Source of the DNA: Planctomycetota bacterium | GTDB taxonomy: Bacteria > Planctomycetota > UBA1135 > UBA2386 | DNA: 64,000 nucleotides | Assembly: GCA_020848735.1 (NCBI GenBank) | Contig: JADLHO010000077.1 | Coordinates: 1-64,000, forward strand | Direction of reading: 5' to 3' | Shown here: piece by piece, positions 3,003 to 37,533 of the stretch | How the letters are laid out: every line of letters begins with the position of its first letter | How positions within the stretch are numbered: the stretch's first letter is position 1 | The notes under the pieces: generated by a model | What the model was told of the DNA's origin: nothing | What the model saw: only the letters and a program-made list of their open reading frames with translations | Databases searched by the model: none | Translations under genes and position numbers: made by a program

Positions 3003-4523
3003 ATGCAGTACGGCTTCATCCTCGACCACCGGAAGTGCATCGGCTGCCACGCCTGCACGGTTGCCTGCAAGGCGGAGAACGAGGTGCCGCTCGGCTCCTT
3101 CCGCACCTGGGTCAAGTACACGGAGATCGGCGTCTTCCCGCAGGTGAAGCGCCACTTCGCCGTGCTGCGCTGCAACCAGTGCACGAAGGCCCCCTGCGTG
3201 ACGATCTGCCCGGTGAACGCGCTGAGCAAGCGCGCCGACGGCATCGTCGACCTCGACAAGGACGCCTGCATCGGCTGCAAGGCCTGCATGCAGGCCTGCC
3301 CCTACGACGCGATCTACCTGAACGAGGACACGGGCGGCGCCGAGAAGTGCCACTTCTGCGCGCACCGCGTGGAGCAGGGGCTGAAGCCCGCCTGCGAGAT
3401 CGTCTGCCCCGAGGAGGCGATCGTCTCGGGCGACGTGCACGATCCGGAGAGCCGCGTGAGCCGCCTGCTGAAGGAGACCGGCCAGCGCGTCGTGCGGCGC
3501 CCCGAGCAGAACACGGGGCCCAACGTCTTCTACCTCGGCATCGACGAGGTCTCGCTCGAGCCCGGACTCGCGCGCGAAGGCGAGGCCTGGCTCTGGTCCG
3601 AGCGCCGCCTGCCGGCGCCCGACCTGCCGCCGGACTTCCCCGTGCACCCGACCGCGCGCACCGTGCTCGACGTCGACCACGACGTGCACTGGGGCGGCAA
3701 GGTCGCCGCATACCTCGTCACGAAGGGCATCGCCGCGGGCGCGGCCCTGCTCGCGCCCGTGCTGCCCCTGCTCGGCATCCGCGGGCTCGCGGGCGACTGG
3801 CTGCCGGAGCTGCTCGCGCTCTGGTTCACGCTCGTCACCGTGGTCCTGCTCGTCTCCGACCTGAAGCGGCCGATGCTCTTCTTCCGCCTGCTCACGCGGC
3901 CGAACCTCAGGAGCTGGCTCGTGAAGGGCGGCCTCGTGCTGAGCGCCTTCGCCGCGGTCACGAGCGGCGTGCTGCTCGCGCGCGCGCTCGGCTACGACGA
4001 CGCGGCCGAGGCGCTGCGCTGGGTGAACGTGCCGCTCGGCCTGCTGACGGCGATCTACACCGCGTTCCTCTTCCAGCAGTGCGAGGGTCGCGACCTCTGG
4101 CAGGCGCCGGGCGCGCTCTCCGTGCAGCTCACGGCGCAGGCGCTCATGCTCGGGGCCGGCCTGATCTGGCCCGCCGCCCTCGTGCAGGGCAGCGGCCACG
4201 CGCTCTTCCCGCTCGCGATCGCGCTCGGCGCCTTCGTCCACCACGCGGTCGCCGCGCAGAAGCAACGCGGCCCGCACGCGACCGCGAACGCGCGCCAGGC
4301 CGCGGCCATCCTGCCGCGCATCCCGCTCGCCCCGGGCCGCGGCGGCAGCGCCTTCCGCACCGGACTCGCGATGACGAGCGCCGCCGGCCTCGCGACGCTC
4401 GCGCTCGGCTTCACGCCGCTCGCCGTCGGGATCGCGTTCGCGGTCTGCCCCGTGCTGCTCGCCGGGTTGATGTTCTACGAGCAGGCCTTCGTGCGCGCCG
4501 CGCAGCTCCCCCCGCTCTCCTGA
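3003..4523 (+). CDS. Four-cluster ferredoxin fused to membrane anchor (molybdoenzyme subunits B+C)
   Basis: Electron-transfer subunit of a complex iron-sulfur molybdoenzyme. Residues 1-140 are a DmsB/PhsB-like ferredoxin with sixteen cysteines in four groups: 12/15/18/22, 57/60/65/69, 89/92/95/99 and 116/119/131/135. After a linker (about 140-235) the remaining 270 residues form several hydrophobic helices, including segments near 240-262, 270-290 and 310-335, resembling the DmsC-type quinol-oxidising anchor. B and C subunits are usually separate proteins, so here they are fused in one chain of 506 residues. The catalytic subunit starts 11 bases after the stop codon. Electrons would pass between membrane quinone and that subunit. 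The start codon lacks a clear ribosome-binding site, but the first cluster begins at residue 12, so little could be missing. Confidence 0.85.
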   Translation: MQYGFILDHRKCIGCHACTVACKAENEVPLGSFRTWVKYTEIGVFPQVKRHFAVLRCNQCTKAPCVTICPVNALSKRADGIVDLDKDACIGCKACMQACPYDAIYLNEDTGGAEKCHFCAHRVEQGLKPACEIVCPEEAIVSGDVHDPESRVSRLLKETGQRVVRRPEQNTGPNVFYLGIDEVSLEPGLAREGEAWLWSERRLPAPDLPPDFPVHPTARTVLDVDHDVHWGGKVAAYLVTKGIAAGAALLAPVLPLLGIRGLAGDWLPELLALWFTLVTVVLLVSDLKRPMLFFRLLTRPNLRSWLVKGGLVLSAFAAVTSGVLLARALGYDDAAEALRWVNVPLGLLTAIYTAFLFQQCEGRDLWQAPGALSVQLTAQALMLGAGLIWPAALVQGSGHALFPLAIALGAFVHHAVAAQKQRGPHATANARQAAAILPRIPLAPGRGGSAFRTGLAMTSAAGLATLALGFTPLAVGIAFAVCPVLLAGLMFYEQAFVRAAQLPPLS

Positions 4524-4534
4524 TCGAGACCCCG

Positions 4535-7321
4535 ATGACGACCGACACGAACGACGGCATGCGGGTCACGCCGCTCGAGAACTTCCCGCCGCCCGAACGC
4601 TGGCTCGACTGGACGGAGCTCGATGCGAAGTCCTGGCCGCGGCGCGTGATGCGCAGGTTCACGCTCGTCCCCACCATCTGCTTCAACTGCGAGGCCGCCT
4701 GCGGGCTCGTCGCCTACGTCGATCGGGACACGAAGGAGATCCGCAAGGTCGAGGGCAATCCCTACCACCCGGGCTCGCGCGGCCGCAACTGCGCGAAGGG
4801 CCCCGCGACGCTCAACCAGGTCAACGACCCCGACCGCATCCTCTGGCCGCTGAAGCGCGTCGGCCCGCGCGGCAGCGGGCGCTTCGAACGCGTGAGCTGG
4901 GACGCGGTGCTCGACGAGCTCGCGGGCCGCATCCGCAAGGCGATCGTCGAGAAGCGGCTGACCGAGGTGATGTACCACGTCGGCCGTCCCGGCCACGACG
5001 GCTACATCGAGCGCGTGCTGCAGGCCTGGGGCGTCGATGGGCACAACAGCCACACGAACGTGTGCTCGGCGGCGGCGCGGCTCGGCTACACGGCGATGAC
5101 CGGCTACGACCGGCCCTCGCCCGACTACGCGAACGCGAAGTTCATCCTGCTCATCTCCGCGCACCTCGAGACGGGCCACTACTTCAACCCGCACGCGCAG
5201 CGCATCCTCGAGGGCAAGATGGCCGGGGCGAAGCTCGCGGCCGTCGACATCCGGCTCTCGAACACCGCGGGCATGGCCGACTGGTGGCTCGCGCCGCGGC
5301 CGGGCACCGAGGCGATGATGCTGCTCGGCTTCTGCAAGCTCGTGCTCGACCTCGGCAAGCAGGACGACGCGTTCCTGCGCACCTGGGTCGACTGGCGCGG
5401 CTGGCTGAAGGCCCGGCAGAAGCGCGGCGGCTACGAGGCCTTCCTCGCCGACCTGCGCGCGTACTACGCGGACTGCACGCTCGCGCGCGTCGCGGCGATC
5501 ACGGGGGTCGCCGAGGCCACGCTGCGCGAGGTCGGCACCGAGCTCGCGAACGCGGGCTCGCGCTTCGCCGCGCACGTGTGGCGCAACGCCGCGAGCGGCA
5601 ACGAAGGCGGCTGGGAGGTCGCGCGCTGCCTACAGCTCCTCTCCACGCTGCTCGGTGCGGTCGGCACGGTCGGCGGCACGAATCCCAACGCGACGAACAA
5701 GTTCGTGCCGCGCCCGCACACGGTGCCCGCGCCGCAGACGGTGTGGAGCGAGCTGCTCTACCCGCGCGAGTGGCCGCTCTCGCACCACGAGCTCTCGTTC
5801 CTGTTGCCGCACCTGCTGAAGTCGGGGCGCGGTCGCATCGACACGTACTTCACGCGCGTCTACAACCCGGTCTGGACGAACCCCGACGGCCTCGTCTGGG
5901 TCGAGGCGCTGCGCGACGAGGCGCTCGTCGGCTGCCACGCGGCGCTCACGCCGACCTGGAACGAGACCGCGCGCTGGGCCGACTTCGTGCTGCCGATGGG
6001 CGTCGCGACCGAGCGTCACGACCTCATGAGCCAGGAGACGCACGCCGCGCGCTGGATCGGCTTCCGCCAGCCGGTGCTGCGCCGCGAGAAGGAGCTCCAC
6101 GGCGAGACGGTCGAATGGACCTGGCAGGCCAATCCCGGCGAGGTCTGGGAGGAGGACGAGTTCTGGATCGCGCTCTCGTGGCGCATCGATCCCGACGGCT
6201 CGCTCGGCATCCGCAAGCACTTCGAGTCGCCGTATCGACCGGGCGAGCGGATCACGATCGACGAGTACTACCGCTGGATCTTCGAGAACTCGGTGCCCGG
6301 CCTGCCTGCCGCGGCGGCGGAGCTCGGGCTCACGCCGCTCGAGTACATGAAGCGGCACGGCTGCTTCCTCGTCGAGGACCGCTGCTACGAGGCGCACCGC
6401 AAGCCACTCGGCGAGGCGGAGCTCAGCGGGGCGAGCCTCGATACCGAGGCCGGCGTGGCGCGCAAGGGCGACGCGATCCTCGGCGTGCTCGACGAGGCGG
6501 GACGGCCCTGCGCGGGCTTCCCGACGCCGAGCAAGCGCATCGAGATCTGGTCGGGCACGCTCGCCGAATGGGGTTGGCCCGAGCACGCCGCACCGGGCTA
6601 CATCGAGAGCCACGTCGACGAGGCACGGCTCGACCGCAGCCGCGCCGAGTTCGTGCTCGTCTCGACCTTCCGCCTCCCGACGCTGATCCACACGCGCTCG
6701 GCGAACTCGAAGTGGCTGAGCGAGCTCTCGAACACGAACCCCGTCTGGATCCATCCGAGCGATGCGGAGCGCCTCGGGATCGGCGCGGGTGATCTCGTGC
6801 GCGTCTCGACGCGCATCGGCCATTACGTGAATCGGGCCTGGGTCACCGAGGGCGTGCGGCCCGGCGTCGTCGCGTGCAGCCATCACATGGGGCGCTTCAA
6901 GCAGCGCGGCGACGAGCACGGCGTGAATCGCTGGCAGCAGCACGAGAGCGACATGCAGGAGACGGCGCCCGGGCAGTGGCGCATCCGCCGCACGGCGAGC
7001 GTCACCGCGTTCGACAGCGCCGATCCCGACAGCCGCCGCGTGTGGTGGCGCGAAGGCGGCGTGCACCAGAACTTCACGTTCCCCGTGCAGCCCGACCCGA
7101 TCTCGGGGATGCACTGCTGGCACCAGAAGGTCACGGTCGAGAAGGCGGCGCCCGGCGACAGCTACGGCGACACGGTCGTCGACACGCGGGCCTCGATGCG
7201 CGTCTTCGAGGAGTGGCTCGCGCGCGCGCGTCCCGCCTCGGCGAAGCTCGGCCTGCGGCGGCCGCTCCACTTCAAGCGCGTCGCGCGGCCGGCCGAGGCC
7301 GCCTTCCGCCTGCCCAGATGA
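4535..7321 (+). CDS. Molybdopterin oxidoreductase, catalytic subunit
   Basis: Catalytic subunit of the DMSO-reductase superfamily, 928 residues. A [4Fe-4S] site is formed by Cys49, Cys52, Cys56 and Cys86. The molybdopterin domains follow, and Cys177 in SHTNVCSAAARLG sits where the family places the molybdenum ligand, suggesting a cysteine-ligated enzyme as in thiosulfate/polysulfide reductases and formate dehydrogenases. The C-terminal part (about 700-850) carries the dinucleotide-binding beta-barrel. No twin-arginine signal is visible at the N terminus, so the enzyme probably faces the cytoplasm. The open frame extends upstream to 3035, but that part is antisense-like shadow of the Fe-S gene; the ATG at 4535, 11 bases after its stop, is chosen. 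The electron acceptor or donor cannot be told from sequence. moaC at 39577-40113 supplies one step of its cofactor. Confidence 0.85.
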   Translation: MTTDTNDGMRVTPLENFPPPERWLDWTELDAKSWPRRVMRRFTLVPTICFNCEAACGLVAYVDRDTKEIRKVEGNPYHPGSRGRNCAKGPATLNQVNDPDRILWPLKRVGPRGSGRFERVSWDAVLDELAGRIRKAIVEKRLTEVMYHVGRPGHDGYIERVLQAWGVDGHNSHTNVCSAAARLGYTAMTGYDRPSPDYANAKFILLISAHLETGHYFNPHAQRILEGKMAGAKLAAVDIRLSNTAGMADWWLAPRPGTEAMMLLGFCKLVLDLGKQDDAFLRTWVDWRGWLKARQKRGGYEAFLADLRAYYADCTLARVAAITGVAEATLREVGTELANAGSRFAAHVWRNAASGNEGGWEVARCLQLLSTLLGAVGTVGGTNPNATNKFVPRPHTVPAPQTVWSELLYPREWPLSHHELSFLLPHLLKSGRGRIDTYFTRVYNPVWTNPDGLVWVEALRDEALVGCHAALTPTWNETARWADFVLPMGVATERHDLMSQETHAARWIGFRQPVLRREKELHGETVEWTWQANPGEVWEEDEFWIALSWRIDPDGSLGIRKHFESPYRPGERITIDEYYRWIFENSVPGLPAAAAELGLTPLEYMKRHGCFLVEDRCYEAHRKPLGEAELSGASLDTEAGVARKGDAILGVLDEAGRPCAGFPTPSKRIEIWSGTLAEWGWPEHAAPGYIESHVDEARLDRSRAEFVLVSTFRLPTLIHTRSANSKWLSELSNTNPVWIHPSDAERLGIGAGDLVRVSTRIGHYVNRAWVTEGVRPGVVACSHHMGRFKQRGDEHGVNRWQQHESDMQETAPGQWRIRRTASVTAFDSADPDSRRVWWREGGVHQNFTFPVQPDPISGMHCWHQKVTVEKAAPGDSYGDTVVDTRASMRVFEEWLARARPASAKLGLRRPLHFKRVARPAEAAFRLPR

Positions 7322-7366
7322 GGCTGGCCAGATGAGGCTGCCCAAATGAGGCTGGCCAGATGAGCG
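7311..7366 (+). repeat. Four 14-base tandem repeats forming a stop/start chain between two genes
   Basis: Four copies of TGSCCARATGAGGC (7311-7324, 7325-7338, 7339-7352, 7353-7366; the last ends in CG). Each copy contains ATGA, at 7318, 7332, 7346 and 7360. The first ATGA holds the stop codon of the molybdoenzyme gene and the fourth holds the start codon of the next gene. Because 14 is not a multiple of three, each inner ATG reads exactly five codons (MRLAR, MRLPK, MRLAR) and stops in the TGA of the next copy, giving three successive ATGA overlaps. The array looks like slipped-strand duplication of an original ATGA gene junction. Confidence 0.9.
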
Positions 7367-8991
7367 GCGGCAAGCTCGCGCGCCTCGCCGCTCGCTTCGG
7401 CGAGACGCTGCCCGTCCGGTCCGGCGCCTCGCTCGACGCCGCGCAGCCGCTGCTCGCGCTCGACGACCCGCTCCTCGACGAGCTGCTGGGCGAGCTCCTC
7501 GATGCGGAGGGCGAGGCGACGGAACCGCTCGCGGCGCTGCGCGACGAGCTCGCGGCCTTCGCGGAGAGCGATGCACCGATCGCGCTCTTCGCCGACAGCG
7601 CGTCGGCGCGCGCGCGGATGCTGCGGGCCACGCGGGCGGCGGCGCGCCCGAACGTGCTCGTGCTCGGCGGCCGTCGCGAGGGTCTGCCGGAGGGCAGCGA
7701 GTCCATCCCGTTCGCCGCGCTCGCGACGGCACCCGCGCGCATCGCCGCACTCGCCGACTCGCTCGCGTCCGTCGTGCTCGAGCCGCGCGGCGAGCTGGCC
7801 CTGCTGCGTGCGATCAGCGCGGCCTGCCATGCCGTCGGCGCGCGCGTGCTGCTCGACGAATCGCGGACGGCCGGACGCGTCGCCGCGCGCGGCGTGGGCC
7901 AGGAGGCCGGTCTCGATGCCGACGCGGTCCTGCTCGGCGAGTCGATCGCGTGCGGCCTGCCCTTCGCCGCGGTGATCGGGATCACCGAGCCCGCGACCCA
8001 GGTCCGGCCCTTCGTCGCGTGCGTCGTGCGCGCGGCCCTGCAACGCCTGGCGCTGCGACCCGTGCACGACGAGCTCAGCCGCCGCGGCTCGCGTCTGCGC
8101 ACCGCGTTCACCGACGCCTGCCGCGCGGCCTCGCTGCGCGCTCGCCTGCTGGGACCTGCGGCGCTCGTCGAACTCGCGTTCGAGACTCAGCAGGGCATCG
8201 ACGGCGAACGGCTCACGGCGCGCGCGGCGCGCGAGCTCGCGGCCGAGGGTTCGCACGCCGCCCGCGAGATCGCCTGGCCCGCGACGCTCACGCAGGCGGA
8301 GGAGGCGCGGCTCGCGCAGCGCCTGCAGGCGCTCGTGCGCCGCATGCAGCAGCTGCTCGTGCAGCACGACTCGTGGCTCGGCGCTGCACTGCCCTGGCCC
8401 TTTCCCGATGCCAGGCCCGCGCTGCGCGGCGCGAGCCTCGTGCCGTTCCGCCATCCCAAGGCGACGGCCGCGACGCTCCGCGTCGCCGGCGGAACCCTCG
8501 AGCTCGAGCTCGCGGCCGCGGAGCTCGGTCCGGGCGGCGCGGGCGGCTGCTGGCTCCCGTTCCGCCTCACGGGCGACTTCGAGCTGCGGCTGCACTACGC
8601 GCTGCGGACCTGGTCGAGCGGCGACGACGCGGCGTGCTTCTCGCTCTTCGCGCAGGCGGAGGCGGAAGCCGTCCAGCACCAGGTGCAGGTCGGCGCGACG
8701 CGGAACGGCAACGTGTTCACGACGACGCTCGCCTCTGTCCGCAGCTCGCCGCGCGCCGCTGCCGCACCCGAGGCCTGGCTCTCGCTCGCGCGCCGCGGCG
8801 ACACGCTCCTCGCCGCCTGCCGCGCGCTCGACGACGAGGCGTGGACGGTACTCGACGAGCGTCGCCCCGTCGCGCGCGAGCCGCTGGTGCTCGGCTGCAG
8901 CCTCGCGGCGCGCGGGCGCTGCGGCGGTCTGCAGGTCGCCGTCCTGGCCTTTCTGATCGAGGGCGAGCTCGCGCCGCGTCAGGGCAGGTAG
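7360..8991 (+). CDS. Class-III aminotransferase-like protein without catalytic lysine, with beta-sandwich tail
   Basis: 543 residues in two parts. Residues about 90-225 resemble the PLP-binding large domain of glutamate-1-semialdehyde aminomutase and class-III aminotransferases: LLDESRTAGRVA (Asp166 at the position that contacts the pyridine nitrogen) is followed by LLGESIACGLPFAAVIG, which lines up with the family pattern LGKxIGGGxPxGAxGG. Glu194 stands where the Schiff-base lysine should be, so normal transamination is not expected. Residues about 385-540 look like a concanavalin-A-like beta-sandwich (CWLPFRLTGDFELRLHYAL). The start at 7360 is coupled to the molybdoenzyme stop through the 14-base repeats. 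It ends convergently with the gene on the other strand, overlapping by 13 bases. Function unknown; a carrier, sensor or degenerate relic are all possible. Confidence 0.6.
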   Translation: MSGGKLARLAARFGETLPVRSGASLDAAQPLLALDDPLLDELLGELLDAEGEATEPLAALRDELAAFAESDAPIALFADSASARARMLRATRAAARPNVLVLGGRREGLPEGSESIPFAALATAPARIAALADSLASVVLEPRGELALLRAISAACHAVGARVLLDESRTAGRVAARGVGQEAGLDADAVLLGESIACGLPFAAVIGITEPATQVRPFVACVVRAALQRLALRPVHDELSRRGSRLRTAFTDACRAASLRARLLGPAALVELAFETQQGIDGERLTARAARELAAEGSHAAREIAWPATLTQAEEARLAQRLQALVRRMQQLLVQHDSWLGAALPWPFPDARPALRGASLVPFRHPKATAATLRVAGGTLELELAAAELGPGGAGGCWLPFRLTGDFELRLHYALRTWSSGDDAACFSLFAQAEAEAVQHQVQVGATRNGNVFTTTLASVRSSPRAAAAPEAWLSLARRGDTLLAACRALDDEAWTVLDERRPVAREPLVLGCSLAARGRCGGLQVAVLAFLIEGELAPRQGR

Positions 8992-36776: not shown

Positions 36777-37460
36777 TCATCCGTCCTCGTCGATCGGGTA
36801 GCGCGGCCCCGTGAACGGCTGGGCCTCGGGCTCTTGCGGCGGGGACGCCTCGGCGGCCTTCGCGCCCCTGCCGACGAAGCCGCCGAACTCGAGCGCGAGT
36901 TCGAGCCGCGCGTGCGCCGGCAGTTGGACGAGCTGGCGGAAGCGCTCGCCGAGCACGCGGCGGAGCTCGGCGCTGACGCGCTCGAGACTCGCGCCATCCT
37001 TCGCCTGGAACTGCGCCTGCACCACGATCAGGCGCCCGCGCGAACGCGTGTCGACGTGGACCCGCAGGCGCGCGAGCTCTTGGATCCCGTCGCCGGCGGC
37101 GCGGAGGCCGGTCTCGAGCGCCTCCCGGGCGACGCGCACCGGGCCCGCCTCCGTGACGCTCACGATCGCCGCCTGCGGCCCGCGCGGCGCGAGCCCCCAG
37201 GCGAGCCAGAGCACGTCGCCGACGAGCAGCACCGCGGCCGCGAAGGCGACGAGGCCGAGCCCCGACGCATCCCGCACCGCGATCCGGAACACGCCGGGTT
37301 CGCGGTTGCTGACGGTGCTCATCGCCTCCGGCGCCGCCCAGACGAGCAGCGCGACGAGGCACGCGACGATCGCCGCCGCGATGTTCGCGAAGAGCAGCAG
37401 GCGGCCCAGGATCTGTTCGACGCCGCTCTTCACCGTCGCACCCGTGCTGGCCCTCGCCAC
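36777..37460 (-). CDS. AmaP-like membrane protein (Asp23-related)
   Basis: 227 residues. Two hydrophobic helices (about 22-44 and 70-90) are followed by a soluble domain with AREALETGLRAAGDGIQELARLRVHVDTR, which fits the membrane-anchor protein AmaP of the alkaline shock protein family. The C-terminal 30 residues are acidic and Pro-rich. AmaP in Firmicutes anchors Asp23 to the membrane; its role in Gram-negative bacteria is unknown. The start is uncertain: GTG at 37460 lies inside the 18-base repeats, and another in-frame GTG at 37433 is equally possible. It follows accC after about 110 bases. Confidence 0.55.
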   Translation of the reverse strand: MARASTGATVKSGVEQILGRLLLFANIAAAIVACLVALLVWAAPEAMSTVSNREPGVFRIAVRDASGLGLVAFAAAVLLVGDVLWLAWGLAPRGPQAAIVSVTEAGPVRVAREALETGLRAAGDGIQELARLRVHVDTRSRGRLIVVQAQFQAKDGASLERVSAELRRVLGERFRQLVQLPAHARLELALEFGGFVGRGAKAAEASPPQEPEAQPFTGPRYPIDEDG

Positions 37461-37533
37461 AGTGCCGGCCAGCGCCGCAGTGCCGGCCCTCGCCGCAGTG
37501 CCGGCCAGCGCCGCAGCGCCGGCCAGCGCCGGC
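37444..37533. repeat. Five 18-base tandem repeats
   Basis: Five imperfect copies of GTGCCGGCCAGCGCCGCA at 37444, 37462, 37480, 37498 and 37516. The unit alternates between CCAGC and CCCTC in its centre. They fill most of the space between accC and the AmaP-like gene and reach into its presumed start. Copy number is likely to vary between strains. Confidence 0.85.

What the first reader, a model, noticed from the sequence alone, without database searches (positions are those of the whole stretch)
7311..7366. Chain of three five-codon mini-ORFs linking two genes by ATGA overlaps
The gene junction ATGA has been multiplied by a 14-base tandem repeat. Since 14 is not divisible by 3, each ATG in the array starts an ORF of five codons that stops at the next ATGA. 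A ribosome finishing the molybdoenzyme gene could pass through three stop/restart steps before starting the aminotransferase-like gene. Repeat number could then tune expression of the second gene: each added copy adds a reinitiation step. I know of no described case of such a ladder.
Basis: partly seen in the sequence, partly recalled or inferred. Interest (0 to 1): 0.75.

Follow-up and report, generated by a model that had tools for sequence, protein, structure and literature searches.

The report
Stop-start relay between two genes
Where two neighbouring bacterial genes share an overlapping stop and start signal, a 14-letter stretch has been copied so that three five-codon mini-genes now link them end to end; similar chains occur in other bacteria, but whether they control protein output is untested.

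Summary
Four ATGA signals with period 14 (7318, 7332, 7346, 7360) link a molybdoenzyme gene (A) to an aminotransferase-like gene (B), making three mini-ORFs: MRLAR*, MRLPK*, MRLAR*. In the one other genome held from the genus, the same A-B junction is a single ATGA overlap, so the array is probably a derived tandem duplication. Each copy repeats A's tail in A's frame and puts GAGG eight bases before the next ATG. A's stop and B's start are now 38 nt apart, a gap at which restart fell by 80-100% in E. coli tests (PMC10666635), so coupling would need the relay or fresh initiation. The array is not alone: with a coding check, 11 other junction arrays (units 14 or 17) turned up in 154 genomes of the order, 5 more in a phylum sample, three in named-record bacteria and one in a viral contig. 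Unit lengths that keep the relay intact (2 mod 3) look over-represented at junctions, but not significantly in matched samples, and a two-copy scan shows no bias. Mycobacterial MIRUs are a described relative, so 'no described case' is too strong. Copy-number tuning is unproven; tolerated duplication is the main rival. New variant of a known kind.

The parts
3003..4523 (+). Upstream gene: 4Fe-4S plus NrfD-like subunit (506 aa)
   Evidence: Pfam Fer4_11 4.8e-22, NrfD 2.6e-11
4535..7321 (+). Gene A: molybdopterin oxidoreductase, 928 aa, ends ...AFRLPR*
   Evidence: Pfam Molybdopterin 4.4e-14, Molydop_binding 6.2e-19; match at E <= 1e-100 in 29 of 34 family genomes, own genome included
7310..7365 (+). 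Array of four 14-base units CTGSCCARATGAGS; 28-base super-unit
7318..7335 (+). Mini-ORF 1, MRLAR*, overlaps A's stop by 4 nt
7332..7349 (+). Mini-ORF 2, MRLPK*, overlaps mini-ORF 1 by 4 nt
7346..7363 (+). Mini-ORF 3, MRLAR*, overlaps mini-ORF 2 and B by 4 nt each
7320..7323 (+). GAGG, Shine-Dalgarno-like, 8 nt before ATG 7332 (repeated at 7334-7337 and 7348-7351)
   Evidence: sequence; duplex energy of the 20 nt upstream with a generic anti-SD is -6.3, -5.6, -6.3 kcal/mol at ATGs 7332, 7346, 7360 against +1.6 at 7318
7360..8991 (+). Gene B: PLP aminotransferase-like, 543 aa
   Evidence: no Pfam family at E <= 0.001; weak NCBIfam matches to glutamate-1-semialdehyde aminomutase models (best 1.5e-6, below cut-off); 43% identical homologue starting at the ATGA directly after A in G001

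Best explanation
A 4-nt ATGA overlap between A and B, as still seen in the sister species, was expanded by tandem duplication (14 bases, then 28) into four stop-start signals. Because 14 is 2 mod 3, each copied stop-start is in register: a ribosome that ends A can restart at the overlapping ATG, make five codons, end at the next ATGA and restart again until it reaches B. Each step re-creates A's own termination context and carries GAGG eight bases before the next ATG. The duplication therefore preserves an A-to-B relay across a gap (38 nt) that might otherwise largely uncouple the genes. Shown: architecture, single ATGA in the sister, phase, SD-like element, recurrence elsewhere. Inferred: order of events, and that ribosomes use the relay. 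Open: whether copy number sets B's level.
For: Exact array and mini-ORFs. Sister genome G001 has A (85% identical) and B (43%) joined by one ATGA. A's tail R-L-P-R-stop reappears as R-L-A-R or R-L-P-K-stop in the mini-ORFs. SD-like pairing appears at every ATG after the first. In E. [quoted passage not shown] Other junction arrays with units of 14 or 17 and at least one restart step: 12 in the order including this one, 5 more in the phylum sample. Named-record cases: transporter permease/ATPase-LivF in an Acidimicrobiaceae MAG, cytochrome oxidase subunits I-III in a Sulfopaludibacter MAG, uracil phosphoribosyltransferase-TetR in Cupriavidus plantarum (gene names recalled from reading the sequences, not from a database call). 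Counted against the tool's reversed-word control, ATGA triplets exceed it at periods of 2 mod 3 (105 rows to 60) but not at 1 mod 3 (50 to 61; Fisher 0.003, rows not independent).
Against: No expression data. The phase bias is weak. Junction arrays: 17 of 79 tandem arrays for lengths 2 mod 3 against 4 of 56 for 1 mod 3 (Fisher 0.029); with at least one restart step 17 of 79 against 3 of 56 (0.013). Without the 21 period-13 arrays from genomes that the truncated period-14 list did not reach: 17 of 79 against 4 of 35 (0.30) or 3 of 35 (0.11); in the order alone 12 of 54 against 2 of 25 (0.20). By genomes instead of rows, the reversed-word control gives no difference (62 to 34 against 34 to 25, Fisher 0.40). 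Two-copy duplications in 3.9 Mb of loci show no such bias. Only one held genome carries this array. The review PMC12548453 cites studies with weaker distance effects.
Confidence: 0.55

Rival explanations
1. Neutral tandem duplication. At a gene junction a duplication of any length leaves A's end and B's start intact, so slippage products survive there without function; the mini-ORFs are a by-product and B starts on its own.
For: Array seen in one held genome only (G001 lacks it). Most tandem arrays with ATGA that I scored are not at junctions (62 of 79 and 52 of 56). Two-copy scan shows no phase preference. Bias not significant in matched samples.
Against: At junctions, lengths 2 mod 3 dominate in raw number (12 of 14 in the order with at least one step; two-sided binomial 0.013 if all lengths were equally frequent, one-sided 0.08 against the background of non-junction arrays).
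Confidence: 0.3
2. The duplication mainly gave B a ribosome binding site: the copied ATGAGG acts as Shine-Dalgarno for fresh 30S initiation at B, and the mini-ORF chain is incidental.
For: Anti-SD pairing at the first ATG is +1.6, at B's ATG -6.3 kcal/mol; G001's single junction has -2.2. In 13 of the 17 junction arrays the B start pairs better than the A-stop unit (sign test 0.049).
Against: One extra copy would do. ATGAG is purine-rich, so better pairing follows from any duplication. In 4 of 17 it is worse (L431, L523, L621, L624). Random 20-mers of this window reach -6 in 12% of cases.
Confidence: 0.12
3. Copy-number dial: strains gain and lose units, and each unit changes B's level by a fixed factor.
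For: Near-perfect short repeats are prone to slippage (general knowledge). Longer tandem repeats between rnc and fpg1 of M. tuberculosis went with higher fpg1 mRNA (PMC2734929, abstract and passages).
Against: No second strain or reads available. Units here differ from each other at a few positions, so the array is not freshly expanded.
Confidence: 0.15

Closest known systems
Termination-reinitiation at ATGA gene overlaps
   Same: 4-nt stop/start overlap, often with an SD motif in the upstream gene's end; each rung is such an overlap (PMC6728339, PMC10666635, passages read)
   Different: The pairs in those passages have one overlap between two full genes; here three mini-ORFs are inserted by tandem duplication
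Mycobacterial interspersed repetitive units (MIRU)
   Same: Repeats at gene junctions whose ORF couples to the next gene with -4 spacing, likely with minimal impact on that gene's expression (PMC12548453, passage); 12 of 41 loci vary in copy number (PMC2734929, passage)
   Different: MIRUs are 40-100 bp, dispersed and appear mobile; here a 14-bp unit made from the local junction itself, single locus, five-codon ORFs. The original 1997 MIRU paper was not read
axe-txe two-codon minigene
   Same: Mini-ORF ahead of a gene in an operon raises its expression; distance from minigene stop to next start matters (PMC8708949, abstract and section 2.3)
   Different: Single two-codon ORF ahead of the SD, not repeated; the authors suggest mRNA protection as a possible mechanism
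Bicistronic design elements of synthetic biology
   Same: Short leader ORF delivers a ribosome to the next start (mentioned in PMC12548453, passage)
   Different: Engineered; one step (recalled)
Yeast GCN4 upstream ORFs (recalled)
   Same: Several short ORFs and successive restarts before the main ORF
   Different: Eukaryotic scanning, non-overlapping ORFs

Membership tests
Coupled ATGA gene pair | Stop and start codons overlap in ATGA between co-directional genes | tested here: met
   Four such overlaps in series; single one in G001
Coupled ATGA gene pair | Translation of the downstream gene depends on the upstream one | not testable with these tools
   Needs reporters
MIRU | Repeat at gene junction with small ORF overlapping the next start by 4 nt | tested here: met
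   Mini-ORF 3 overlaps B by 4 nt
MIRU | 40-100 bp unit dispersed at many loci | tested here: not met
   14-bp unit, one locus in the held genome
MIRU | Copy number varies between strains | not testable with these tools
   No further strain found; sister species has no array
VNTR/contingency locus | Near-identical short tandem units | tested here: met
   28-bp super-unit 96% matches
VNTR/contingency locus | Reversible change of expression with copy number | not tested
   Needs strains or reporters

The most novel reading that the evidence does not exclude
Stop-start ladders are a recurrent, independently evolved class of cis-element in bacteria and phages: tandem duplication of a coupled junction builds a self-similar relay in which every rung repeats the upstream gene's own termination site, only unit lengths of 2 mod 3 survive well, and the number of rungs sets the ratio of downstream to upstream protein.
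Probability: 0.2. Interest if true: 0.8.

Novelty: new variant of a known kind. Interest (0 to 1): 0.5.

Why it matters
Whether a ribosome that has ended a gene slides along the mRNA or restarts only at an overlapping start is disputed (PMC10666635 contrasts the models). Ladders are natural experiments on this: with relay phase intact or broken, at fixed distance, they separate the two. If copy number sets output, bacteria would have a simple mutable dial for the ratio of neighbouring proteins, and engineers a small part to copy.

Tried and rejected
Conservation in relatives: A is in 29 of 34 family genomes (own included), but B was found behind A in only 2 of the 29 loci (window and G001); 4 loci hold under 200 nt beyond A (L035, L036, L038, L048) and could hide it. 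So conservation of the array itself could not be tested. My first junction table covered only loci with A on the plus strand; one search repeats it for all 29.

Strict ladder count (A stops at the first ATGA or an in-register TGA one or two units before it, B starts at the last): set aside because lengths of 1 mod 3 let B start at either of the last two ATGs, so the criterion favours 2 mod 3. One search is the fairer test. There the class 'two or more steps', 16 of 79 against 0 of 56, is partly structural and not relied on. Rows dropped before counting: arrays with spacer identity under 0.5 or a shorter inner period (order 117 to 79; phylum 26 to 25, 11 to 10, 22 to 21). Two of the 17 are imperfect ladders: L527 has a single step and in L624 A stops in a CTGA.

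Of the 9 loci listed, L121, L162 and L163 hold. L099 is a 7-base microsatellite; in L064, L065, L132 and L150 the long upstream frame is not the coding frame by GC3, and L064's downstream frame is 67 codons and not coding-like; in L136 A stops 7 nt before the first ATG. A looser count (60 codons) gave 4 for period 14 (4 tandem) and 6 for 13 (2 tandem), no clear phase bias.

RNA fold of 7290-7390: -51.1 kcal/mol, z -1.82, 12 of 200 shuffles as good: no convincing structure. Literature searches for a described short ladder; none seen in the listings beyond MIRUs. The library holds only open-licence PubMed Central papers. Not run: structure prediction, Rfam, PADLOC, PHROGs.

Full report
What is there. 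Gene A (4535-7321, molybdopterin oxidoreductase) ends in an ATGA at 7318, and gene B (7360-8991) begins in an ATGA at 7360. Between them lie two more ATGAs at 7332 and 7346. The four units are CTGCCCAGATGAGG, CTGGCCAGATGAGG, CTGCCCAAATGAGG and CTGGCCAGATGAGC. As a 28-base repeat the array matches at 96%, so the simplest history is one 14-base duplication followed by a 28-base one (inference). The three mini-ORFs are MRLAR, MRLPK and MRLAR. A itself ends R-L-P-R-stop, so each mini-ORF is a start codon fused to a copy of A's tail, read in A's frame. This follows whenever the unit length is 2 mod 3.

Where it came from. In the only other genome held from the genus (G001), A (85% identical) and B (43%) are joined by a single ATGA. 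Of 29 family loci with A, only these two have B behind it; 4 others hold under 200 nt beyond A and cannot tell. In five other relatives the fetched locus of the B homologue (about 1.5 kb on each side where the contig allowed) holds no A (L006-L010). So the gene pair, coupled by one ATGA, is probably as old as the genus, and the array arose on the window's lineage or was lost from the sister's. The unit was found nowhere else in the held genome.

How it could work. From A's stop to B's start is now 38 nt. In native E. coli pairs, extending the distance to +38 nt cut restart by 80-90% in two cases and abolished it in one; 15 nt of the upstream gene's end were enough for coupling (PMC10666635, passages). 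The review PMC12548453 notes that other studies found weaker distance effects (passages). If the strong dependence holds here, B can stay coupled to A only through the mini-ORFs. Each rung also has GAGG 8 nt before the next ATG: pairing with a generic anti-SD is +1.6 kcal/mol at the first ATG and -6.3, -5.6, -6.3 at the following ones, and -2.2 at G001's junction. Random 20-mers of this window average -3.2, with 12% at or below -6, so this is only moderately strong. Whether extra rungs raise or lower B cannot be told: restart losses multiply, but each rung is also a possible entry site.

Is it alone? No. Of the 9 loci that one search listed with long frames on both sides, L121, L162 and L163 hold under a coding check. 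By their sequences (names recalled from reading them) these are a branched-chain amino acid transporter permease/ATPase with LivF, cytochrome c oxidase subunits I and III, and uracil phosphoribosyltransferase with a TetR regulator. L136 has A ending 7 nt before the ladder. In 154 genomes of the window's order, three ATGAs at a fixed period occur in 28 (period 14), 22 (17), 14 (13), 14 (16), 12 (11) and 6 (10) genomes. With a GC3 coding check, junction arrays there are 4 of 28 tandem arrays for period 14 (including this one), 8 of 21 for 17, 0 of 5 for 11, 0 of 10 for 13, 1 of 12 for 16 and 1 of 3 for 10. In a phylum sample picked by eye from a partly truncated list: 5 of 25 arrays for period 14 and 2 of 31 for 13. 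One viral contig has five copies of a 17-base unit between frames of 139 and 105 codons (L680).

Is the phase selected? If ladder ATGs are really used, units of 1 mod 3 should be disfavoured, since with two copies the restarted ribosome enters B out of frame. Raw numbers agree: 17 of 79 against 4 of 56 (Fisher 0.029). But 21 of the 56 come from genomes that the truncated period-14 listing did not cover. Matched, it is 17 of 79 against 4 of 35 (0.30), or 3 of 35 with at least one restart step (0.11); in the order alone 12 of 54 against 2 of 25 (0.20). The tool's reversed-word control gives the background of tandem triplets: for 2 mod 3, 105 ATGA rows against 60 control rows; for 1 mod 3, 50 against 61 (Fisher 0.003, but one array gives several rows). 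Counted as genomes it is 62 against 34 and 34 against 25 (0.40). So tandem triplets as such are not peculiar to ATGA. A search for two-copy duplications in all 3.9 Mb of loci held at that point gave, at 80% identity or more, 2 for 2 mod 3, 6 for 1 mod 3 and 4 for 0 mod 3, some of them pieces of longer arrays: no support. The phase argument is a lead, not a result.

What it resembles. It is a series of ordinary ATGA couplings. The nearest described natural analogue is the MIRU of mycobacteria, said to insert at start codons so that its own ORF is coupled to the next gene with -4 spacing, likely with minimal impact on that gene's expression (PMC12548453, passage). There, too, copy number varies at 12 of 41 loci (PMC2734929, passage). 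At rnc-fpg1, tandem repeats fill a junction that is only 1-54 bp in the other mycobacteria of that paper's table, and longer arrays went with more fpg1 mRNA (PMC2734929); the passages I saw do not say that those repeats form coupled ORFs. A two-codon minigene that raises txe expression, with distance to the next start as a key parameter, is another relative (PMC8708949, abstract and section 2.3). I found no paper on a short ladder of this kind in the listings of eight searches.

Verdict. A real and recurrent architecture; relay use is plausible but unshown; tolerated duplication remains a serious rival; copy-number tuning is speculation. It is worth a cheap reporter test.

Noticed in passing
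L010, about 1330-1440: In G015 the FemAB-like gene facing the B homologue ends ...SRYLP-stop and is followed by two more tandem copies of its last codons with the stop (period about 36): another duplication at a gene end.
   Followed up: no
window 37444-37531: Highest-scoring tandem array of the window: period 18 (36), unit GTGCCGGCCAGCGCCGCA, length a multiple of 3, possibly an in-frame coding repeat.
   Followed up: no
L488, L520, L511, L515: Relatives carry ATGA-containing arrays of 16 or 17 bases and up to 6 copies that did not pass as lying between two long co-directional genes.
   Followed up: partly
L162: In the cytochrome oxidase I-III ladder the spacers have diverged (78% identity over the array) while all four ATGAs remain, but the search required ATGAG, so this may be selection by search.
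   Followed up: no
window 7360-8991: B's homologues in five other family genomes (30-33% identical) have no A in the fetched locus.
   Followed up: partly
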